IMG/VR virus record: IMGVR_UViG_3300030687_000021
Span: 1 to 51,022 of that record
Reading direction: 5' to 3' (one strand)
Source of the DNA: a virus
Length of the DNA: 51,022 bases
Under the pieces are notes generated by a model that saw only the letters and a list, made by a program, of their open reading frames with translations, was not told the DNA's origin and made no database searches. How positions within the stretch are numbered: position 1 is the stretch's first letter; the number at the start of each line of letters is the position of its first letter. Shown one piece after another: positions 6,155 through 38,965 of the stretch. Made by a program: the position numbers and the translations under genes.

Positions 6155-6181
6155 CGAAAAGCGCTCTACAAAGCCCTTTCG
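6155..6181. promoter_or_regulatory. 27-bp dyad operator, copy 1
   Basis: CGAAAA, then GCGCTCTACAAAGCC, then CTTTCG. This is a slightly degenerate copy of the dyad that recurs at 8420, 19377, 26073, 26963 and 31545. It lies 13 bases upstream of the -35 box, about one helical turn further than copies 3 and 4, which keeps the same DNA face. Probably a regulator binding site. Confidence 0.6.
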
Positions 6182-7198: not shown

Positions 7199-7443
7199 GC
7201 TGTTCTTGCCCTGTAAGTAGTCGAGTAAATTAGGGTGCTCTCGCCTGGTTGATCAACGCGCCGGTTATTCCAGAATCGCTGGACTTCGAGCATTTCTATA
7301 AGCTCGTCAAGTTTGCGTGAGCTGCCCATCTGGATAAAGGTCGCGTAGAAATCACGTTGGGTGGGTAGACGGGCACAGAGTTGGTCTCTATAGTCGAACG
7401 CCTTCTGCCACTGCGATGCAGTCCACCCGTAAACGCGAATCAC
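7195..7443 (-). CDS. Hypothetical protein, 82 aa
   Basis: Unrecognised; rich in aromatic and arginine residues (GWTASQWQKAFDYRDQLC at the N-terminus). It directly follows the ParB-like gene with an ATGA overlap, so the two are probably made together. No membrane segment or metal motif is visible. Confidence 0.55.
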   Translation of the reverse strand: MIRVYGWTASQWQKAFDYRDQLCARLPTQRDFYATFIQMGSSRKLDELIEMLEVQRFWNNRRVDQPGESTLIYSTTYRARTA

Positions 7444-8378
7444 GCGGGAGCTGCACTGCTGCCGGCTTTCGTGCGAACCTTGGCGATTTCTTCGTTCGCG
7501 TCCAGCAGGGCGCGGAGCTGCGCCTTGGGCATCTGCACGTTCACGAAATCCTCATCTTTTGCGTCTTGAATCGCAACGCGCGCTGCGATTTCGAACGACT
7601 GCGTGAAAATCGTTCGGATGGTGTTTTCGCAGCGGTCGGCCAGTTTGCGGGGAAGGGCTGTTCCAGAGATAGACTTCTGCGTCAGCTTACCTTTCTTCGA
7701 TCTATCGAGCAGCGACTGCAGGAACGGTCCTGCGTCGCTGCCATGCTCCTTGATCGCTTTGATTGCTACCCGGCCCGGAACCTTGCCTAGGGCTACCAGC
7801 ATATGTACGTCTGGACTGGACATGGCGAGCGTCAGCGCCTGATCGACGTGCGACTGCGACTTGTGCTCTTCGGCCGCAATCACTGCGCGCGATATACCGA
7901 TCTTAACGAGCTTGAGGTAGCCGATGCCTTGTTCCAGCGTCGATATGGGTTCCGAGCCTTCCGCGGTGCCGAGCATATGGAACACGCGGTCTGCCAAAGC
8001 TTGCGCTTCCGGCGAAAGGGGTACTGCGGTGCCGAGCTTGCGACCAGTGGCGTTGCCATTAAGCTCGCGCACGTCCACTTCGAGAATTATGTGACCCTCA
8101 GCGATCAGCTCTTGGAACGCGGTAGTGCGCCGATGGCCGTCGACGACGAACGAACCGCCTACATCGTTACGCACGTCGATTGCCGGCATGCTCGCACCGG
8201 CTAAGATGTCTAGCTTCATCTTACCGATTTTCTCGCGCGCCTCCGGCGTATCGATTCGCACATTGAAGCCCTCCTCGATCAGGAGCAGCGCTGGGTTCAG
8301 CTTGTAGTACTTTGAGTGTTTTTTGACGCCAGGTTCGTGCCCTTCGGCGCGCTGTTTCATCGAAAGTATTTGTGCCAT
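7440..8378 (-). CDS. ParB/Srx-domain protein (plasmid partition or regulator), 312 aa
   Basis: After about 30 residues comes a ParB N-terminal-type domain: EGFNVR, then a central strand and the hallmark VDGHRRTTAFQEL (about residues 80-92). A helical region follows (SRAVIAAEEHKSQSHVDQAL, about residues 165-185) that fits the ParB HTH domain. The open frame begins at 8459, but I start at the ATG at 8378 because CCAAGG precedes it and the longer version would run through the promoter and dyad. Family members bind centromere DNA and may hydrolyse CTP. The gene is not next to parA, so it may be a second segregation factor or a regulator. It could itself bind the repeated dyads or the hairpin array. 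Confidence 0.75.
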   Translation of the reverse strand: MAQILSMKQRAEGHEPGVKKHSKYYKLNPALLLIEEGFNVRIDTPEAREKIGKMKLDILAGASMPAIDVRNDVGGSFVVDGHRRTTAFQELIAEGHIILEVDVRELNGNATGRKLGTAVPLSPEAQALADRVFHMLGTAEGSEPISTLEQGIGYLKLVKIGISRAVIAAEEHKSQSHVDQALTLAMSSPDVHMLVALGKVPGRVAIKAIKEHGSDAGPFLQSLLDRSKKGKLTQKSISGTALPRKLADRCENTIRTIFTQSFEIAARVAIQDAKDEDFVNVQMPKAQLRALLDANEEIAKVRTKAGSSAAPA

Positions 8379-8407
8379 TCGGATACCTTGGGGTTGGGTG
8401 TATCCGA

Positions 8408-8446
8408 ATAATACACAAACGAAAACGCTTTGTAGAGCGCTTTTCG
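8408..8446 (-). promoter_or_regulatory. ParB-operon promoter with dyad over the -35 box
   Basis: The dyad at 8420-8446 has CGAAAA, inner CGCTTTGTAGAGCG and TTTTCG. On the - strand its centre gives a -35 TCTACA (8431-8436). A 17-base spacer follows, then -10 TATTAT (8408-8413), about 30 bases before the start codon. A protein bound here would cover the -35 box, which suggests repression or autoregulation. Confidence 0.6.
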
Positions 8447-8570
8447 TTTTATTTGTCACGCATTTCTGCTATCGATCGGTACACAGCTGCTGGGTGGATA
8501 CGTAACCGTCCGTATCGTATAATTTATTGCACCTTATAATTTTTCATAGGGTCCTCAGCGCTCTATGAAA

Positions 8571-9157: not shown

Positions 9158-10090
9158 TCAGGCTGCGATTGCGGTCTGACGCCTACGTTTAACCTGCACT
9201 AAATCCGTCCGCGGGTCTATCGAAGCCGACTCGAAGAAGCCGGACTCTTCCAGGTTCCTGAGTGCGCCCTTGAGCATGTAGCGAAACTTGGCCAGTGTGG
9301 CGCAGCTGCTGCCACAGAGCGTGTACAGCGTCGATGTCTTGTAGGCGTAAGGCTCGCGATGTGTGAAATAAAAACTGTGCAGCCACTTCTCCAGCGACGT
9401 GAGCGACAGGCGCTGCTCCCAGTCAACTAGCGTGAATTCATCCTTGCCGAACAGATTAATGATGTCGGGGTCAAGACGGAACTGCCATTTGACGTGTTTC
9501 CCCTGTTCGGACTCTTCGCCCTCTTCTCGCCATTTCAACTTAGCGATCAAGCGGCCGTTGTAACCGTTCCGTTTTCTCTTAGGCGCTGCCGCGCCGGCAG
9601 CGACGCTCGCCTCCACTTCGTCCTCGTTGGTGTACGTGACCCATATGGTGCCCTCAGAGAGTCTGCCGATGGATTCCAGGAGGCGTTTGTACTTGTCCGA
9701 CGACCTGCCCCACCCTAGCGCCGTCAGAACCATGTGGCCCGTGACGACGAACGGCTCTCCGACATCAACCATCCGACCCAAGTGGACGATCTGAAGGAAC
9801 ACGTCCTCGTCGTCCTGCCGCAGCTCCTCACCCGTGTACTGGATCACGATTCCCTGCAGCGACGCTATGACCTCTCGTGCGTACATGCGGCGCGGTTCAT
9901 TGCGGTTTCCCACAGTGAACAAGGCGCATCGAGCCAGCGAGTTAGGAAGCCCCCTCACCTTGTCAGACCAGAGCATCAACTGCTGGATCACCTTTAGTTT
10001 CAAGGCTTTCTCAGGCTTAGCTTTTACCGACTTCGAAGCCCGCTGAGCAACCTCGTGTACCCTGTCCATAAACTGCCGTGCGTCTTCCAT
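9158..10090 (-). CDS. trfA: TrfA-family plasmid replication initiator, 310 aa
   Basis: The central region matches RK2 TrfA in order and spacing: LPNSLARCALFTVGNR (about residues 46-61), then IQYTGEELRQDDEDVFLQIVH (split by a few residues). This continues as GEPFVVT...LGWGRSSDKYKRLLESI and the HSFYFTHREPYAYK segment near residue 235. TrfA proteins bind iterons as monomers through two winged-helix domains, open the origin and recruit host DnaB. The start ATG has AGAGG six bases upstream. Directly upstream lie 14 iterons, the expected binding site. The protein is the shorter, Pseudomonas-independent type, without the long N-terminal extension of RK2 TrfA-44. Confidence 0.9.
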   Translation of the reverse strand: MEDARQFMDRVHEVAQRASKSVKAKPEKALKLKVIQQLMLWSDKVRGLPNSLARCALFTVGNRNEPRRMYAREVIASLQGIVIQYTGEELRQDDEDVFLQIVHLGRMVDVGEPFVVTGHMVLTALGWGRSSDKYKRLLESIGRLSEGTIWVTYTNEDEVEASVAAGAAAPKRKRNGYNGRLIAKLKWREEGEESEQGKHVKWQFRLDPDIINLFGKDEFTLVDWEQRLSLTSLEKWLHSFYFTHREPYAYKTSTLYTLCGSSCATLAKFRYMLKGALRNLEESGFFESASIDPRTDLVQVKRRRQTAIAA

Positions 10091-10158
10091 CGCTGGCCTC
10101 TTGCGTGTTGGTTTTCAGGACTCTAGCACGGGGTCCAAATCAAATTAAAGCGGAAATG

Positions 10159-10387
10159 TTCGCCTTAAGACTGATGGCACTTGATGTTCGCCTTTTGACT
10201 GATGCACTCTTTCGCCTTATGGCTGATGTCTAGATTCGTCTTTTGACTGATCCGAGTAACCTCGCCTTTAGGCTGATCGCTGCATTCGCCCTATGACTGA
10301 CGGTTTTCGTCTGAAGACTGATCAATGTCGCCTTTAGCCTGACAAAAACTCGCCTTTAGGCGCATCCATATTCGCCTTTAGCCTGAC
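10159..10387 (+). repeat. Iterons of oriV, group 1 (ten direct copies)
   Basis: Ten copies of a 17-18 base iteron with consensus TTCGCCTTTAGGCTGAT start at 10159, 10187, 10211, 10235, 10261, 10285, 10306, 10327, 10349 and 10371. The spacing is 21-28 bases (about two helical turns). Copies vary at the central purines, and the ninth has a degenerate 3' end. They lie immediately upstream of trfA and are the probable TrfA binding sites. Confidence 0.9.
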
Positions 10388-10485
10388 AACGCATTTCCTG
10401 TAAAGCCTTATAAACAAAGGGCTTCCAGAATTTCTGAAAGCCCCCTAATCGTCTTTAATGTTTATAAATGGTTTACCCCTTGAAT
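10388..10485. other. AT-rich segment of the origin with DnaA-like boxes
   Basis: Between the two opposed iteron groups lies an AT-rich stretch with TTATAAACA (10408-10416, one mismatch to the DnaA box). It also has a hairpin-like GGGCTT...AAGCCC and TTTATAAATGG. This is the likely unwinding region. No gene is present. Confidence 0.6.
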
Positions 10486-10640
10486 CATCAGCCTAAAGGC
10501 GATATTCGCAGCGTCCGCGCCCTTCTCTCAAACCTCGAAACTACTTTAAAAGAGCCATCAGTCAAAAGACGAAAACCAGCGATTCTGCTCTTGTAAACCA
10601 TCAGTCAAAAGGCGAATATCACGATCACTCTAAAGACGAA
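10486..10640 (-). repeat. Iterons of oriV, group 2 (four inverted copies)
   Basis: Four copies of the same iteron in the opposite orientation occur at 10486-10502, 10556-10573, 10599-10616 and 10624-10640. They include two near-perfect copies reading TTCGTCTTTTGACTGATG on the - strand. Spacing is wider (about 70, 43 and 25 bases), so they may handcuff with group 1 and control copy number rather than fire initiation. Confidence 0.85.
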
Positions 10641-10684
10641 AACCGGTTTAGCAGAAAAGGGGCAAAACCTTTGTTAGTGAGCAC

Positions 10685-11065
10685 TCACTTTAGCTCTATG
10701 CCCCGTTCTGCCATCATCCGCCGGATTTCCGTCTCGATTCCACGCGCAGCTATCTTAGTCATGCTTTCGCCTGGCGTGTATGTCGCCAGCTCGTTCAAAA
10801 CTTCGTGCAGATCAGAGCGAATGCGAACGTTGAACTGCGTCGTCGGCACCTTCTTCGGCAACACGCGCCAATCAGTTGCCGGTGCTGCGGTTTCTGCTTC
10901 AAGAGCCGCGGCCGGCGGCGCTTCCTGCTGTTGCGTGGCTGCTACAGGTGCGGGGGCTGGCAGCGCCTCAGCTGCCGGCGGGACCTCGTTGATAATCCCC
11001 TGGACTTTGGCCAAGGTCTCTTCCGGCGTTGCGGCCCTGGGGCGCGCGGTCATGGGCTTACTCAT
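10685..11065 (-). CDS. RHH-type partition partner of ParA, 126 aa
   Basis: The first about 70 residues are disordered and proline/alanine/glutamine-rich. The C-terminal about 50 residues (FNVRIRSDLHEVLNELATYT, then a second helix IAARGIETEIRRMM) look like a ribbon-helix-helix domain with a beta strand at FNVRI. I start at the ATG at 11065, which overlaps the parA stop, rather than the longer frame. A small RHH protein after a short ParA is the type Ib arrangement (as in ParF/ParG). The mobile N-terminal tail would contact ParA, and the RHH would bind the centromere. Confidence 0.75.
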   Translation of the reverse strand: MSKPMTARPRAATPEETLAKVQGIINEVPPAAEALPAPAPVAATQQQEAPPAAALEAETAAPATDWRVLPKKVPTTQFNVRIRSDLHEVLNELATYTPGESMTKIAARGIETEIRRMMAERGIELK

Positions 11066-11708
11066 TTCCGAAAATCTCCAGATAAAGGCTCTCAATTTCA
11101 GCTGCGGCTTTGGGGTCATACTCGCTACGAGACAGCTCACGAACGCCCTTCCCTGCCTCATATGCGTTCTGATACGCGACGCGCTCGCAAACACGCGAAT
11201 CCAGCAGCTTCATACAGTCGCTGAACTCCGCGAATCCGTCCGTGAACCGTTTGAACTGGTTGCTCGACCCGTTGACCATGTTGAGCACCACGCACACGTC
11301 TTTGGGCGTCTCAATCTCAGCGTTGATGCGCCGGATAAAGTCTGCGAAGTCCGGGAACGTGCGTAGGTCTGCCGGCGACGGCTTGATCGGTACGATGGTC
11401 TTGTCTGCAATGACAATAGCCTCGCGCAAGTCCCGTGTGTCTTTACCGCCAATATCCACGATCACTGTGTCGAACGCCTCGCGCATCTTGATAAGCTCTT
11501 TCGTAAGGCTCTTACCCTTCGACACACACACGATCTGTGGAACCACCTCGTTATAGACTCGCGCGGCGGCCCACTCAGTTGTCGTGCGCTGCGGGTCTAG
11601 GTCGACCAGTAGGGTCTCAAATCCCCTACTCGCACGCTCCACGGCCATCTCTTCCGCGAGCGTGGACTTACCCACTCCACCCTTCTCTGCACCAAACGTA
11701 TATAGCAT
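11058..11708 (-). CDS. parA: ParA-family partition ATPase, 216 aa
   Basis: The N-terminus is a deviant Walker A, AEKGGVGKSTLAEE (about residues 7-20), followed by LLVDLDPQRTTTEW (Walker A') and TVIVDIGGKD (Walker B). At 216 aa it lacks the N-terminal HTH of type Ia ParA, so it is type Ib. It forms ATP-dependent patterns on the nucleoid and segregates the plasmid form. The ATG at 11708 has GGAG 5 bases upstream; a GTG at 11711 is an alternative. The downstream gene is its RHH partner, and the upstream region holds repeated TATAGCAC sites. Confidence 0.92.
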   Translation of the reverse strand: MLYTFGAEKGGVGKSTLAEEMAVERASRGFETLLVDLDPQRTTTEWAAARVYNEVVPQIVCVSKGKSLTKELIKMREAFDTVIVDIGGKDTRDLREAIVIADKTIVPIKPSPADLRTFPDFADFIRRINAEIETPKDVCVVLNMVNGSSNQFKRFTDGFAEFSDCMKLLDSRVCERVAYQNAYEAGKGVRELSRSEYDPKAAAEIESLYLEIFGNE

Positions 11709-11778
11709 CACCGCTCCATGTGATTAACCCATCTACCAGATTAGCGGCGTCAGTTCGGCGAGTCAAACGTTTAAGTGA

Positions 11779-11806
11779 TAAATGCCGTATTTATAGTTTT
11801 GTGTTG
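11779..11806 (-). promoter_or_regulatory. parA promoter-like element of the ACTATAAA family
   Basis: On the - strand, CAACAC, then a 16-17 base spacer with AAAACTATAAATACGG, then CATTTA. The spacer matches the promoter family exactly, but the -35 and -10 hexamers are weak. It may need an activator, or may only be an operator. Confidence 0.4.
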
Positions 11807-11830
11807 GCATTCCACTACGCTGATACATCA

Positions 11831-11897
11831 TGCTATATAGCACCGTGTATGTGTAGCATTGCATATAGCACGCTATATAGCACTGACGCTATATGTG
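11831..11897. repeat. Candidate partition centromere: repeated TATAGCAC
   Basis: The 12-mer GCTATATAGCAC occurs at 11832 and 11872 (40 bases apart). A third TATAGCAC lies at 11864 and a related CGCTATAT at 11887. TGCTATATAGCA (11831-11842) is a perfect palindrome. Small palindromic repeats upstream of parA are typical binding sites for an RHH partner. No gene lies in 11709-11901. Confidence 0.65.
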
Positions 11898-11901
11898 TTG
11901 A

Positions 11902-12249: not shown

Positions 12250-12810
12250 TCATTTTACAGATCCCAGCACATCAGTAACGATAGCCCACAGAGCCTCAGG
12301 TGCCCATTGCTTGCGATCAAAGTCCACATCGGGGTCTACACCCAACGCACATAGGGAATGGGCACCGCGGGTGCCTTCGTCGGTCTTCTTCATGATGGTC
12401 GCCACCTTGCCGTCGCCGCCCGGTTGCGTCGAGTGGTAGCAATATGCCATAAACCGGTATTCCTGGCCGGCTTCGATCACATCTGCAGCTTGCTGGTGCA
12501 CTGCCAGCGTAAAGTCCGGTTTCCAGGGCCTATTGCCGCGTTTGGTGCGTTTCCCTTCGTGCAGGTAGGCCATATGCGTAGAAAGGTCGGAAACCTGCCT
12601 GGTGGCCGTATAGCGCACGTTTATCTGCTGGCCAACCAGGACACGGGACGTAAAGCTGAACCGATGGTCATGGATCGCTGAATGCTCAAAACAGGAGCGG
12701 CGCGGCAGCTCCGGGTGCCAAACATGCATCCGTTGATTGCCGGCGAGCTTGACCTGGACAAATCCAAGGCCGTGAAGGGTGATATTTTCTTCTGTTGGTT
12801 CGAATTTCAT
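12250..12810 (-). CDS. Cupin-like phage protein, 186 aa
   Basis: A single-domain beta-rich protein with the phage motif MHVWHPELPRR, then SAIHDHRFSFTSRVLVGQ (about residues 45-62). Its histidines (HPE, HDH and YCYHSTQ near residue 124) could bind a metal as in cupins. Such proteins are common in tailed phages of proteobacteria, without a known substrate. It ends the operon just before the 12167 terminator and overlaps the upstream gene by an ATGA. Confidence 0.65.
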   Translation of the reverse strand: MKFEPTEENITLHGLGFVQVKLAGNQRMHVWHPELPRRSCFEHSAIHDHRFSFTSRVLVGQQINVRYTATRQVSDLSTHMAYLHEGKRTKRGNRPWKPDFTLAVHQQAADVIEAGQEYRFMAYCYHSTQPGGDGKVATIMKKTDEGTRGAHSLCALGVDPDVDFDRKQWAPEALWAIVTDVLGSVK

Positions 12811-16007: not shown

Positions 16008-16548
16008 GCAGACTGACGAACGGAAGGGGACTCAGCACTAGCTGGCATACGCCGGGCACTTGCCAGAGCTTCCAGCCCAGGTTCAAGCGCGCGCAGCGTG
16101 TGCTGCTGTAGATCCACACGCCGTAAAACTGCCACGCGTTTGAGGTCCAGGCGAAGTACCAACCGCTCTGCGTCAATGCGCCGCCGAGAGGGAGTGTGCC
16201 GAACAGTTTGGGCGTTGCCGTTACAGACACCCCTGCAACGTCGATACCGAAGCCGTAGGCGGGATTGCGCATCAACCACCATATCCGGTTGACGTAACGT
16301 CGCCAGCCGGTCTGAGGGGGCGTAAACCACGCGTGTGAGGCTTGAAACGCTGTATCGCCGTCGAGCGAGTTGTCGGGCGTCTGAAACCACCACAACCATG
16401 TCGGGAGATAGCCGGTCGACGTGGCGAAAGCGGGGAGAAGCAGGGCGGCAGGGTAGGCGATCAGTGTAAAGGCGAAGTTCAGGGTCGCCGCGAGTAGCCA
16501 GCGCGTCGTATTCACGACTATCAGCGCGAAACAGCGTAAATATTTCAT
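15991..16548 (-). CDS. DUF7338-like phage membrane protein, 185 aa
   Basis: The N-terminus has one or two membrane spans (RCFALIVVNTTRWLLAATLN and FTLIAYPAALLLPAF). The family-like phrase WLWWFQTPDNSLDGD follows near residue 51, then YVNRIWWLMRNPAYGFG near residue 84. These features fit the DUF7338-type proteins of many siphoviruses. The role is not known; it may sit in the inner membrane and modify host processes. It lies alone with a 43-base gap downstream. Confidence 0.7.
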   Translation of the reverse strand: MKYLRCFALIVVNTTRWLLAATLNFAFTLIAYPAALLLPAFATSTGYLPTWLWWFQTPDNSLDGDTAFQASHAWFTPPQTGWRRYVNRIWWLMRNPAYGFGIDVAGVSVTATPKLFGTLPLGGALTQSGWYFAWTSNAWQFYGVWIYSSTRCARLNLGWKLWQVPGVCQLVLSPLPFVSLPAIPA

Positions 16549-19346: not shown

Positions 19347-19374
19347 ACTATACCAGTTTTATAGTTTTGTACAA
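19347..19374 (-). promoter_or_regulatory. Composite promoter of the 12.2-19.2 kb operon
   Basis: On the - strand: -35 TTGTAC (19369-19374), a 16-base spacer AAAACTATAAAACTGG, and -10 TATAGT (19347-19352). The 27-bp dyad lies only two bases upstream. It probably drives the genes from 19181 down to 12250. Confidence 0.7.
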
Positions 19375-26072: not shown

Positions 26073-26099
26073 CGAAAAGCGCTTTACAGAGCGTTTTCG
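26073..26099. promoter_or_regulatory. 27-bp dyad operator, copy 4
   Basis: CGAAAA, GCGCTTTACAGAGCG, TTTTCG. It also covers the last codons and stop of the upstream BRO-like gene (NENAL and TAA), so operator and coding end share the same bases. Confidence 0.7.
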
Positions 26100-26377
26100 T
26101 TAAAAAGTTGTAACGTAGCGGAAACAGCATGTGCTGCAGGGGCTTTCGAACGGTAGAGCGCTACGGCGGCCTGGTCCGCGTCAACAAAGCGCCACTGTTT
26201 GCCAGTCTCGGTCAACTGGACTAGCGAGCCGGTCCAGGTGCTAGTCGCTGCGGCCGGGGTTTTGTATCCGGCTTCGCGTGCAACGTCTGAGGCGACGAAT
26301 AGCGGCTTACCGCCGTGGGTGATGTAGCGAATCCGCGTGCCAGGCACGGTTTCGAGGACTAGACGGCGTCTAGGCAC
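26084..26377 (-). CDS. BRO-N-like protein, 97 aa
   Basis: GGKPLFVASDVAREAGYKTP at about residues 22-41 matches the core of BRO-N domains (phage and baculovirus DNA-binding or antirepressor proteins). At 97 aa it is a BRO-N-like domain alone, without a C-terminal partner domain. The start overlaps the next BRO-like gene by 8 bases. It may act as an antirepressor or transcription modulator. Confidence 0.6.
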   Translation of the reverse strand: MPRRRLVLETVPGTRIRYITHGGKPLFVASDVAREAGYKTPAAATSTWTGSLVQLTETGKQWRFVDADQAAVALYRSKAPAAHAVSATLQLFNENAL

Positions 26378-26918
26378 GTTTCACGCCGAAAGCGACATCA
26401 AGCAAAGCATTGACGCGCTCGGGGGATTGCGGATCGCTTGGCGGCTCCTGGGCGGCTTCGGCGTCAGTGTGCGGCGCGTAGGCTGCTATGACGCTGCGAG
26501 CGGCTTCTGCGCGGTTCTGCAGCTGTTCCAGCTGGGTGTTGATATAGGCCAGCTGGAACTTGGCCACATGGCTGTCGTTTTCCGGGAACTCGGGCAGGTC
26601 AAGCACAGGGAATACAACAGCGCGCATCCAGTCGGCGAAGTGCACAGCGGTTGCACTTCGCGGTGTGCAGGTTAGAACACCTGCCAGGGTGACGGCCTTT
26701 ACCGGCCGCTCGCGGCGCTGCATCTTGACGATACGCGCATGCTCGGACTCGTGCGGTGACATGCGGCCGGTATGTGCATAGCCAAGAGCCGCAGCGATCT
26801 CGGCAAAAGCGAAGACGATTTCCGCGTTTGCGACCTCTGCGACAATGAAATGATCGCGGCTATTGGGGTCGGTGTAAGTGAACACATAATCAATGCCGTC
26901 TGAGTGGTAAGGCTGCAT
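26370..26918 (-). CDS. BRO-N-like protein with coiled C-terminus, 182 aa
   Basis: YVFTYTDPNSRDHFIVAEVA leads into FAEIAAALGYAHTGRM, and later FADWMRAVVFPVLDLPE (about residues 93-109), the closing helix-strand pattern of BRO-N domains. A coiled stretch follows (LAYINTQLEQLQNRAEAARS). It is first in its two-gene operon, directly behind a dyad that overlaps the -35 box. BRO-type proteins commonly regulate lysogeny switches; here it is the best candidate for binding the dyads, or for countering the protein that does. Confidence 0.6.
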   Translation of the reverse strand: MQPYHSDGIDYVFTYTDPNSRDHFIVAEVANAEIVFAFAEIAAALGYAHTGRMSPHESEHARIVKMQRRERPVKAVTLAGVLTCTPRSATAVHFADWMRAVVFPVLDLPEFPENDSHVAKFQLAYINTQLEQLQNRAEAARSVIAAYAPHTDAEAAQEPPSDPQSPERVNALLDVAFGVKRA

Positions 26919-27203: not shown

Positions 27204-27698
27204 AACTGGTAGGAAAACCGATCAGTACCATAAATAGCGTATATATCGCTGCGAACTGGTAGGAAAACCGATCAGTTGGTGCTTAAAATTTAGGCAGATG
27301 ACGCTAACTGGTAGGAAAACCGATCAGTTAGGAGGGCGAAACGAGCTAACTGGTAGGAAAACCGATCAGTTGGTGCCCTAAAATTAGCTAACTGGTAGGA
27401 AAACCGATCAGTTAGGAGGCCGAATTAACGAACTGGTAGGAAAACCGATCAGTTGGGAGGGAGGGGAAAAGTGCTGCGAACTGGTAGGAAAACCGATCAG
27501 TTAGTGTTTTCTGCCTAAAATTTAAGCACCAACTGGTAGGAAAACCGATCAGTTAGGAGAAATCGAGTGTCTAACTGGTAGGAAAACCTACCAGTTGGTG
27601 TTTTGTGCTCAAATATTAGGCACCAACTGGTAGGAAAACCGATCAGTTAGGGCCTATAAATAGGGTGTTTATCGTACTGGTAGGAAAACCGATCAGTT
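27204..27698. repeat. Array of 11 hairpin repeats (non-coding)
   Basis: Eleven 24-base units start at 27204, 27254, 27306, 27348, 27390, 27431, 27479, 27531, 27573, 27625 and 27675. Each has arm AACTGGTAGG, loop AAAA and arm CCGATCAGTT. The ninth has arm CCTACCAGTT and is a perfect 10-bp stem, while the others carry one wobble and one mismatch. Start-to-start distances are 41-42 or 48-52 bases, about four or five helical turns. Spacers are of two kinds: 17-18 bases, mostly beginning AGGAG, or 24-28 bases, several reading GGTG...TAAAATTT. I see no gene from 26990 to 27762. A centromere, replication control or packaging site are all possible. Confidence 0.95.
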
Positions 27699-27762: not shown

Positions 27763-27954
27763 TCACTTCGAAGCGGCGAGCGCTGCGACTGCGGCCCGCA
27801 GAGTTGGGGCACTGATCGATGTAGTGGATTGGGTGCGCAAAGCGGCGCGCATATCCTTGACGCACAGTTTTAGCGCTCGCCGCACCTCAGCCAAGGTGTC
27901 AGGCATCGCTGCGAGTTTCCGGCCGTTTTCGCGTATTTCGGCATTGCTTGGCAT
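27763..27954 (-). CDS. Small basic helical protein beside the hairpin array, 63 aa
   Basis: I start at the ATG at 27954 (MPSNAEIRENGRKLAAMP); the longer frame would include the promoter. It is basic and helical (LAEVRRALKLCVKDMRAAL), compatible with a small DNA-binding protein. It is transcribed toward the hairpin array, which begins 65 bases after its stop, and has its own promoter. A role in binding the array is plausible from position only. Confidence 0.55.
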   Translation of the reverse strand: MPSNAEIRENGRKLAAMPDTLAEVRRALKLCVKDMRAALRTQSTTSISAPTLRAAVAALAASK

Positions 27955-28048: not shown

Positions 28049-28149
28049 CCTTTCAAATCTATAAACTTGGTGCCCTTTAGAAACGAAACCGGCACAATAG
28101 AGGGCTTTCAATGCTACAATCCGGGAAATTAGGCTTAGGGAGTTTAGCA

Positions 28150-28419
28150 ATGATCACATCACCGCCGCGCAGACTTATTGACAAGATAGTCCAGGAAACG
28201 GGCGCTGACGAAGAGCTGATTAAGCGGGCTTTAACGATTGCGTTTGAGACAATCAAAGAGGAAGCCGCAGAAGGTACTGTAATGATTCGCGGCTTCGGTA
28301 CTTTTTACACGCTTGAGCGTAAGGGCTGTGTGCGTCCGCTTCCGTCCAACACGTCGCGCACCATCGAAGTACCTGCGACCCGGCGCTTGTCGCTGCGCAG
28401 TGTTCCTGACCGGTTCTAG
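28150..28419 (+). CDS. HU/IHF-family DNA-binding protein, 89 aa
   Basis: LIDKIVQETGADEELIKRAL gives the N-terminal helices. VMIRGFGTFYTLERKG is the hallmark GFGxF turn before the beta arms, and the end IEVPATRRLSLRSVPDRF matches the C-terminal part (usual ending KxxxxPxxSF). At 89 aa it is full length. The start ATG has GGGAG eight bases upstream. Such proteins bend DNA and help replication, recombination or packaging. It is one of the few + strand genes in this half and is followed by a perfect palindrome. Confidence 0.8.
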   Translation: MITSPPRRLIDKIVQETGADEELIKRALTIAFETIKEEAAEGTVMIRGFGTFYTLERKGCVRPLPSNTSRTIEVPATRRLSLRSVPDRF

Positions 28420-29530: not shown

Positions 29531-29564
29531 TTCCTAATGCCCTAAGCCCGCGTATAGCGGGCTT
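29531..29564. repeat. Repeated hairpin unit, copy 1
   Basis: TTCCTAATGCCCTAAGCCCG (29531-29550) is identical to 29937-29956. It opens a stem AAGCCCGC/GCGGGCTT (29544-29551/29557-29564). The run after the stem is T-rich only on the + strand (TTGGTTTG), although the flanking genes are on the - strand. Confidence 0.75.
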
Positions 29565-29936: not shown

Positions 29937-29970
29937 TTCCTAATGCCCTAAGCCCGGATATACCGGGCTT
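29937..29970. repeat. Repeated hairpin unit, copy 2
   Basis: The same 20-base opening as copy 1, then stem AAGCCCGG/CCGGGCTT (29950-29957/29963-29970). Copies 1 and 2 flank the 29584-29910 gene, so that gene is a cassette bounded by direct repeats. Confidence 0.75.
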
Positions 29971-30912: not shown

Positions 30913-31401
30913 CTAAATGTGTTTCCACGTGACGCGGGTTTTGATGTGGTGGATCGACACCTGCGACACGCCGTAGCGCGCTGCAAGGTCACGGCCGCTG
31001 TCCGTCGATATGCGGATGTCTCGAACGTCCTGTTCGGCAAGCTTGGCGCGGGGTGACGTTTCGCCAGCATCGCGAGCCGTGCGAATTCCCCAATGCAAAT
31101 TACTGATTTTGCAGTCGGTCACATCGCCGGATTTGAATAAGCCCTCGTAACCCTCAGGACAAGGCCCGGCAAACGCTGCGAGCACCAGACGATGCAGCAG
31201 AAACCGCCTGGTGACGCCTAGCTTGCATAGCGTTACCTGCAATCGTCCTTTGTTGTTTGATCCAATCTTCAATAGGTGTTTAGTAGTCCTGATACCTTCC
31301 GCGGTCGCTGCATTACTCAATCGCTTGAGACTGCGCACATTGCCATCGTCGCTTACTTGATACAGGCCGATGTAGTCGGGAACGTCGCGCCAGATTTCCA
31401 T
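30913..31401 (-). CDS. NUMOD4/HNH-like homing endonuclease with altered active site, 162 aa
   Basis: WRDVPDYIGLYQVSDDGNVR (about residues 4-23) is a NUMOD4 motif. GRLQVTLCKLGVTRRFLLHR and LVLAAFAGPCPEGYEG follow, then SNLHWGIRTARD, the HNH frame. A C-terminal HTH (LAARYGVSQVSIHHI) completes it. The usual second histidine and NN pair (NHxDGDxxNN) read LFKSGDVTDC here, so the nuclease may be inactive. It is preceded by a non-coding stretch to 31630. Confidence 0.75.
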   Translation of the reverse strand: MEIWRDVPDYIGLYQVSDDGNVRSLKRLSNAATAEGIRTTKHLLKIGSNNKGRLQVTLCKLGVTRRFLLHRLVLAAFAGPCPEGYEGLFKSGDVTDCKISNLHWGIRTARDAGETSPRAKLAEQDVRDIRISTDSGRDLAARYGVSQVSIHHIKTRVTWKHI

Positions 31402-38152: not shown

Positions 38153-38965
38153 ATGATTTTGAAACTCGATGCAGATGGTCATGTGGTTGTTGAGAACGGC
38201 AAGCCGGTTTATGTGGACGAGCACGGCAAGGACATCGCATTCGATGCGCCGGGCACCGCCGCGACCATTGCCCGTCTCAACGCAGAAGCCAAGACGCATC
38301 GGGAAGGTAAGCAGACCGCTGAGCAGAGTCTGAAGGCCACAGCGGAACAGCTGGCAGCTTTCGAGGGTATCGACCCAGTAGCGAGCCGCAAAGCCTTGGC
38401 AACGTTGAAGGATATCGACGCTGGCAAGCTGATCGACGCCGGCCGCGTGGACGAAGTCCGCGCAGCGGTGGCGAAAGAATACGAAGGACGTTTGACCACG
38501 GCGCAGACCGGCTACACCACTGAGCTGGCGGCCATGAAAGCGGCGAATGAGCAGCTGACCGGCACGCTGCACAACGAAATGATTGGCGGTAGTTTCGCCC
38601 GCTCGAAGTACGCAGCTGAGTCGCTGGCGATTCCGGCCGACATGGTTCAAGCGAAGTTTGGGCAGCATTTCAAGCTGGATGGCGGAAAGGTTGTGGCCAC
38701 CGACGCCAGCGGCAACATGATTTATTCGCGCGCCCGGCCAGGCGAAGTGGCTAATTTCGATGAAGCACTGTCGGAGCTGGTCGGCAACTACGCGAACAAG
38801 GATCACATTTTGAAACCCTCGGGTGCGAACGGCTCTGGCGCAAATGCCTCTGCCGCTCGGATTGCGGCAGAGGCAGGCAAAGGTCTTTCCCGCGCAGATT
38901 TCGATGCACTTGCACCGAAGGCGAAGATGGCGCATGTACAGGCCGGACTCGCGATCACTGAATAA
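38153..38965 (+). CDS. Scaffold-like protein (DUF6651-like), 270 aa
   Basis: Long charged helical body with RLNAEAKTHREGKQTAEQSL and LAAMKAANEQLTGTLHNEM. The C-terminal ARPGEVANFDEALSELVGNY is typical of proteins that precede P22-like capsids. The ATG at 38153 has AAGGA upstream. It probably guides capsid assembly and is lost on maturation. Confidence 0.8.
   Translation: MILKLDADGHVVVENGKPVYVDEHGKDIAFDAPGTAATIARLNAEAKTHREGKQTAEQSLKATAEQLAAFEGIDPVASRKALATLKDIDAGKLIDAGRVDEVRAAVAKEYEGRLTTAQTGYTTELAAMKAANEQLTGTLHNEMIGGSFARSKYAAESLAIPADMVQAKFGQHFKLDGGKVVATDASGNMIYSRARPGEVANFDEALSELVGNYANKDHILKPSGANGSGANASAARIAAEAGKGLSRADFDALAPKAKMAHVQAGLAITE

What the first reader, a model, noticed from the sequence alone, without database searches (positions are those of the whole stretch)
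27204..27698. Eleven phased hairpin repeats in a gene-free stretch
Eleven copies of a 24-base stem-loop (arm AACTGGTAGG, loop AAAA, arm CCGATCAGTT) repeat with start distances of 50, 52, 42, 42, 41, 48, 52, 42, 52 and 50 bases. These fall near four or five turns of DNA, so all copies face nearly the same side. Copy 9 is a perfect stem. The spacers fall into two classes (short, mostly AGGAG-starting; long, several GGTG...TAAAATTT), so they are conserved as well. I do not know any named element with this form. A centromere, origin, packaging or RNA-based decoy are all open.
Basis: seen in the sequence. Interest (0 to 1): 0.88.

Follow-up and report, generated by a model that had tools for sequence, protein, structure and literature searches.

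The report
Palindrome array in a phage-plasmid control region
A virus that also carries plasmid genes has eleven nearly identical 24-base palindromes in a gene-free stretch; they look like a multi-site docking platform for a DNA-binding protein, similar in layout to the F plasmid's centromere, but the protein and the job remain unproven.

Summary
The array is real. Eleven copies of AACTGGTAGG-AAAA-CCGATCAGTT lie at 27204-27698, all in one orientation, with 0 expected by chance. The window is a 51-kb IMG/VR contig of a tailed phage carrying plasmid genes: trfA with its own oriV (14 iterons, 10156-10645), a ParA gene, a ribbon-helix-helix-like partner gene with repeats upstream of parA, and a ParB-like gene. 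The array is therefore neither the TrfA origin nor, probably, the ParA-partner centromere. The 24-mers stay identical while spacers between duplicated 94-bp units have diverged (0 of 48 versus 29 of 46 sites, Fisher 1e-12). Ten copies share the same two stem mismatches, so one oriented sequence is being kept. Copy 9's perfect stem and an inverted spacer (s2 versus s7, 24/28) fit known template switching at inverted repeats. Helical phasing is only partial. No relative of the array was found. The region also holds two further families of dispersed palindromes. Best reading: a sopC-like cluster of sites for a phage-encoded dimeric DNA-binding protein used in prophage maintenance or control; the ParB-like protein is the leading candidate (about 0.4). 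Operator array, structured RNA, second origin or packaging site, and neutral amplification remain open. New variant of a known kind.

The parts
27204..27698 (+). Array: eleven oriented 24-bp quasi-palindromes AACTGGTAGGAAAACCGATCAGTT with ten spacers of 17-28 bp
27573..27596 (+). Copy 9, AACTGGTAGGAAAACCTACCAGTT, the only perfect 10-bp stem (two changes, both repair the stem)
27254..27347 (+). Unit 1: 24-mer + A spacer + 24-mer + B spacer (94 bp)
27479..27572 (+). Unit 3 (94 bp), tandem with unit 4; differs from unit 1 at 29 spacer sites and no 24-mer site
27573..27666 (+). Unit 4 (94 bp)
27278..27305 (+). Spacer s2 (A class), reverse complement of s7 at 24 of 28 positions
27503..27530 (+). 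Spacer s7 (A class, opposite orientation to s2)
27228..27253 (+). Spacer s1 (C class), weakly resembles the dispersed operator AACTATAAATACGGTATTATTAGTT
   Evidence: 13.5 bits at most; maxima of random genomes: mean 10.6, largest 14.6
27649..27674 (+). Spacer s10 (C class), weakly resembles the same operator
   Evidence: 9.6 bits
26962..26990 (.). Copy of the second dispersed palindrome ACGAAAACGCTTTGTAAAGC..., between the array and the 182-aa gene
26370..26918 (-). 182-aa protein, weak Bro-N (antirepressor-type) match
   Evidence: 16.1 bits, E 0.018, below cut-off
26084..26377 (-). 97-aa Bro-N/antirepressor-like protein
   Evidence: E 5e-4 and 6e-5; Pfam score below its cut-off
27763..27954 (-). 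63-aa ORF next to the array, no family
28111..28419 (+). HU/IHF-family protein
   Evidence: PF00216, 2e-8
7440..8459 (-). ParB-like protein, G-H-R-R box II present, no ParA-binding motif; leading candidate to bind the array
9158..10090 (-). TrfA replication initiator
   Evidence: PF07042, 1.6e-30
10156..10645 (.). TrfA-type oriV: 14 iterons TTCGCCTTTTGACTGATG in two opposed blocks
11058..11711 (-). ParA ATPase, 217 aa
   Evidence: AAA_31 56 bits
10685..11065 (-). Small ParA partner (reading from its internal ATG) with a C-terminal ribbon-helix-helix-like region
   Evidence: weak match to omega repressor 1irq, E 0.77
11720..11900 (.). AT-rich stretch upstream of parA with GCTATATAGCA-type repeats, candidate centromere of the ParA/partner pair
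   Evidence: few, weak repeats

Best explanation
The array is a double-stranded DNA recognition platform: eleven copies of one oriented quasi-palindromic site that load many dimers of a phage-encoded DNA-binding protein side by side, 4-5 helical turns apart, into one large nucleoprotein complex. In layout it is closest to the F plasmid centromere sopC. The most likely ligand is the phage's ParB-like protein, and the most likely use is maintenance or control of the extrachromosomal prophage (pairing, segregation or copy control, possibly also silencing the adjacent control region). Shown: the array, its boundaries, one-orientation copies, preservation of the 24-mers against diverged spacers, and the plasmid module elsewhere in the genome. 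Inferred: that a protein binds, that it is the ParB-like protein, and the maintenance role.
For: 0 of 48 24-mer sites differ between units 1 and 3, against 29 of 46 spacer sites (Fisher 1e-12; units 3/4 p=7e-5; units 1/4 p=1e-8). The site is confined to one cluster with sharp ends; the best match elsewhere is 16/24. Two half-sites AACTGGTAGG/AACTGATCGG flank a constant AAAA. Nine of ten spacings lie within 2.5 bp of a whole number of turns. The contig carries trfA, oriV, parA, a ParB-like gene and no integrase match, as expected of an extrachromosomal prophage. TrfA plasmids pyh83p and pTY921B carry clusters of short palindromes next to parA. Centromeres of the sopC/OB kind are inverted repeats within longer iterons, at one locus or scattered (PMC5016525).
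Against: The ParA here is short and sits beside a ribbon-helix-helix-like partner with its own upstream repeats, as in type Ib systems, so a centromere already seems accounted for. The ParB-like protein lacks the (L/F/I)G(K/R)G(L/F/I) ParA-binding motif and its gene is about 19 kb from the array. Four phages and one contig with a related ParB-like protein show no repeated-palindrome family in the parts read. No second genome with the array was found, so conservation between genomes is untested.
Confidence: 0.4

Rival explanations
1. Operator array of the lysogeny switch. A phage regulator binds the eleven sites to control the neighbouring Bro-N antirepressor-like genes, or the array acts as a sink that sets the free level of that regulator.
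For: The array lies in a control region with two other families of dispersed palindromes: AACTATAAATACGGTATTATTAGTT at 6 strong and 2 weaker sites and ACGAAAACGCTTTGTAAAGC at 6 sites. Bro-N-like genes lie directly to the left. Spacers s1 and s10 resemble the first operator, and both 24-mer and operator have AACT...AGTT ends, 16 versus 17 bases apart.
Against: Eleven near-identical clustered sites are unusual for an operator. The operator-like scores of s1 and s10 are within the range of random genomes. No repressor gene was identified.
Confidence: 0.25
2. Structured noncoding RNA on the plus strand, a chain of hairpins that sequesters a protein or RNase.
For: The plus-strand hairpin is more stable than the minus-strand one (-7.3 vs -4.1 kcal/mol). 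The plus-strand fold is 12.8 sd below shuffles and still 7 sd below when only spacers are shuffled. Ten copies keep the same G.U and A.G, and all are in one orientation.
Against: No Rfam family. No convincing promoter before or terminator after the array. Long-range folding follows from the inverted spacer pair s2/s7, so it is not independent. No covariation beyond copy 9.
Confidence: 0.15
3. A second (lytic) origin or a packaging site.
For: Oriented iteron-like repeats beside an HU-like gene, in an intergenic stretch richer in A+T than the genome; the small terminase gene lies 4.3 kb away.
Against: The array holds no TrfA iterons, no DnaA boxes, and no second initiator was recognised in the window. 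Terminase relatives read over this distance show no such array.
Confidence: 0.1
4. A functionless array made by tandem duplication of 94-bp units and kept palindromic by replication template switching.
For: Units 1, 3 and 4 have the same 94-bp layout. Copy 9's paired changes (4 of 2484 possible double changes would do this) and inversion of s2 relative to s7/s9 match known results of template switching: arm homogenisation and spacer inversion (PMC8604942).
Against: Template switching should equalise the two arms, but ten copies keep the same two mismatches while spacers diverge.
Confidence: 0.1

Closest known systems
F plasmid sopC and OB-type (type Ia) centromeres
   Same: Many copies of one short inverted repeat inside longer iterons, clustered at one locus of a low-copy replicon (PMC5016525). 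From general knowledge, sopC has twelve 43-bp units, close to the 42-bp spacing seen here.
   Different: 24-bp imperfect palindrome, variable 41-52 bp spacing, spacer classes and an inverted spacer, about 19 kb from the ParB-like gene, no type Ia ParA found, different sequence.
parS loci of extrachromosomal mycobacterial prophages (RedRock, Miko)
   Same: Arrays of a repeated ParB site in phages kept as plasmids (PMC7157519).
   Different: RedRock parS loci are eight direct copies of an 8-bp motif, in phages with parABS cassettes.
Palindrome clusters of Burkholderia TrfA plasmids pyh83p and pTY921B
   Same: Clustered palindromes in replicons with a related TrfA.
   Different: Next to parA, different sequences, 84-167 bp apart in pyh83p.
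TrfA iterons / oriV
   Same: Oriented repeats in the same genome.
   Different: Different sequence, mostly 21-28 bp apart, next to trfA; none in the array.
TIGR arrays
   Same: Phage-borne arrays with short repeats and alternating intervals (PMC12045711).
   Different: TIGR repeats are 8-12 nt with 9-nt spacers and a Nop-domain protein; no Nop match here.

Membership tests
Type Ia centromere (sopC-like) | One kind of short inverted repeat within longer iterons at one locus | tested here: met
Type Ia centromere (sopC-like) | Cognate ParB with box II and DNA-binding domain | tested here: inconclusive
   ParB-like by PHROG 1033 (1.6e-30) with GHRR; no Pfam or PDB match
Type Ia centromere (sopC-like) | Coupling to a ParA through the ParA-binding motif and a neighbouring parAB operon | tested here: not met
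   Motif absent; the only ParA found is 16 kb away beside a different partner
Type Ia centromere (sopC-like) | Stabilises a low-copy replicon when bound | not testable with these tools
   needs a plasmid-loss assay
TrfA iteron origin | TrfA iterons present in the array | tested here: not met
   best score in the array region 5.9 bits versus 18-29 for the iterons at 10156-10645
CRISPR array | Identical repeats with unrelated spacers of near-constant length | tested here: not met
   Spacers are 17-28 bp and related to each other; the 20-mer core is absent from the genome-contig collection
TIGR array | 8-12 nt dual repeats, 9-nt spacers, adjacent Nop-domain protein | tested here: not met
Described RNA family | Reaches an Rfam gathering score | tested here: not met

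The most novel reading that the evidence does not exclude
A phage-plasmid carries, besides an ordinary ParA/partner module, a remote sopC-like array that loads an orphan ParB-like protein without ParA, for example to condense, pair or silence the prophage genome; the array's oriented imperfect palindrome is selected as such and evolves by template switching.
Probability: 0.2. Interest if true: 0.7.

Novelty: new variant of a known kind. Interest (0 to 1): 0.45.

Why it matters
Orphan ParB-like proteins are widespread, also in phages, and most have no assigned DNA target. An array of this kind beside a complete plasmid module would give one a testable site. The array is also a compact natural record of arm homogenisation and spacer inversion at inverted repeats.

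Tried and rejected
TrfA origin: rejected by an iteron weight matrix. CRISPR and TIGR: rejected on architecture and the missing Nop domain. Known RNA families and tRNA: none. Relatives of the array: none in phages or plasmids by DNA, in viral contigs by exact or degenerate pattern (the eleven degenerate matches are single sites), or in genome contigs (six single sites). Relatives through neighbours: the 182-aa protein and the ParB-like protein gave none in viral contigs; terminase relatives have no TrfA match and no such array in the parts read; the protein at 12250-12810 led to other phages without such an array. Operator motif in viral contigs: only a fragment of the same virus. L014 and L113 carry an iteron cluster; in L014 it lies inside a replication-type gene and is not of this kind. 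Structure prediction was not run; it would not have decided between the readings.

Full report
What was checked. The window is one IMG/VR virus record of 51,022 bases, classed as linear. Eleven copies of AACTGGTAGGAAAACCGATCAGTT, allowing at most two differences, lie at 27204-27698 on the plus strand; dinucleotide shuffles give none. Eight copies are identical, copies 1 and 11 differ at one outer base, and copy 9 differs at two bases that together make the stem perfect; only 4 of 2,484 possible double changes would do that. The array sits in an 844-bp stretch without convincing genes.

The genome around it. Terminase subunits and other head and tail genes are on the right half (head and tail genes other than the terminase were judged by position and reading, not by a family search). 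The left part holds a plasmid module: TrfA (9158-10090), a ParB-like protein (7440-8459), a ParA ATPase of 217 aa (11058-11711) and a small partner whose C-terminal part reads as a ribbon-helix-helix protein, with only a weak match to the omega repressor. The order parA, small gene, iterons, trfA is the same in the Burkholderia cenocepacia plasmid pTY921B. No integrase family match was found. The contig appears to end within the tail region, so the genome is probably incomplete (inference).

What the array is not. TrfA iterons form two opposed blocks, 14 in all, at 10156-10645; a weight matrix built from them scores at most 5.9 bits in the array, against 18-29 for those iterons. Related TrfA loci carry iteron-like repeats at the same place, just upstream of trfA. 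Repeats of GCTATATAGCA type lie upstream of parA, where type Ib centromeres lie (PMC5016525); these repeats are few and weak, so this is a candidate only. CRISPR, TIGR and known RNA families were tested and not met.

How the array evolved. Spacers fall in three classes in the order C A B A B B A B A C. Three 94-bp units (24-mer, A, 24-mer, B) share one layout. Between units 1 and 3 no 24-mer site differs but 29 of 46 spacer sites do (Fisher 1e-12); these are gapless comparisons, and part of the spacer difference reflects the inversion described next. Units 3 and 4, in the same orientation, still give 2 of 48 against 17 of 46 (p=7e-5). Spacer s2 is the reverse complement of s7 at 24 of 28 positions although all 24-mers keep one orientation. 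Inversion of a spacer between inverted arms, and repair of one arm from the other as in copy 9, are known outcomes of replication template switching (PMC8604942). Template switching alone would make both arms alike, yet ten copies keep the same two mismatches. This argues that one oriented sequence is preserved, by selection or by conversion between direct repeats; the data do not separate these.

Phasing. Spacings of 42 and 52 are near 4 and 5 turns, but 48 and 50 are not. At 10.5 bp/turn copies 2-6 and 7-10 form two in-phase groups about half a turn apart (R=0.33). The best period in 10.2-10.8 gives R=0.74, reached by about 2% of random spacings, and the mean distance to a whole turn has p=0.008; both are inflated because 52+42 recurs through duplication.

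Control region. Two further palindrome families are dispersed near genes: AACTATAAATACGGTATTATTAGTT at 11785, 26048, 28026, 28867, 30332 and 31583, weaker at 19353 and 6104, and ACGAAAACGCTTTGTAAAGC at 6163, 8419, 19385, 26081, 26962 and 31553. At four places the two lie within about 60 bp of each other. The genes left of the array are Bro-N-like, one at E 5e-4 and one at E 0.018, both below the Pfam cut-off. This context supports an operator role as the main rival.

DNA or RNA. The plus-strand hairpin is the more stable one and the whole array folds far below shuffles. The long-range part of that fold follows from the inverted spacers, and no promoter, terminator or covariation supports a transcript. 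A DNA role is preferred, not shown.

Best reading and limits. A sopC-like cluster of sites for a phage-encoded dimeric protein, with the ParB-like protein as leading candidate, fits best at about 0.4. Against it, the ParB-like protein lacks the ParA-binding motif (motif as defined in PMC12704722), relatives of that protein have no such arrays in the sequence read, and no other genome with the array was found. Three other IMG/VR contigs (L009-L011) match the window at 100% between 30166 and 41063, one lacking 55 bases, but none reaches the array, so its copy number rests on one assembly.

Noticed in passing
window 11785, 26048, 28026, 28867, 30332 (-), 31583 (+); weaker 19353, 6104 (-): A dispersed 25-bp palindrome AACTATAAATACGGTATTATTAGTT upstream of genes, with a TATTAT-like -10 inside; looks like an operator-promoter regulon. 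Only a fragment of the same virus has it in viral contigs.
   Followed up: partly
window 6163, 8419, 19385, 26081, 26962, 31553: A second dispersed palindrome ACGAAAACGCTTTGTAAAGC..., 0 expected by chance, often just beside the first operator.
   Followed up: partly
window 10156-10645: Fourteen TrfA-type iterons in two opposed blocks next to trfA, plus one isolated strong match at 16459 (23.8 bits).
   Followed up: partly
window 29534-29550 and 29940-29956: Identical CTAATGCCCTAAGCCCG at the start of two hairpins with the same stem layout, in gaps between small minus-strand genes; possibly terminators.
   Followed up: no
L011 4007-4008 versus window 38213-38269: 55 window bases are missing from an otherwise identical contig of the same virus.
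   Followed up: no
L014 680-842: Iteron cluster inside a replication-type gene of a terminase relative, resembling an iteron cluster in a TrfA contig, L113 881-960.
   Followed up: partly
window 30913-31401: NUMOD4/HNH homing-endonuclease-like gene.
   Followed up: no
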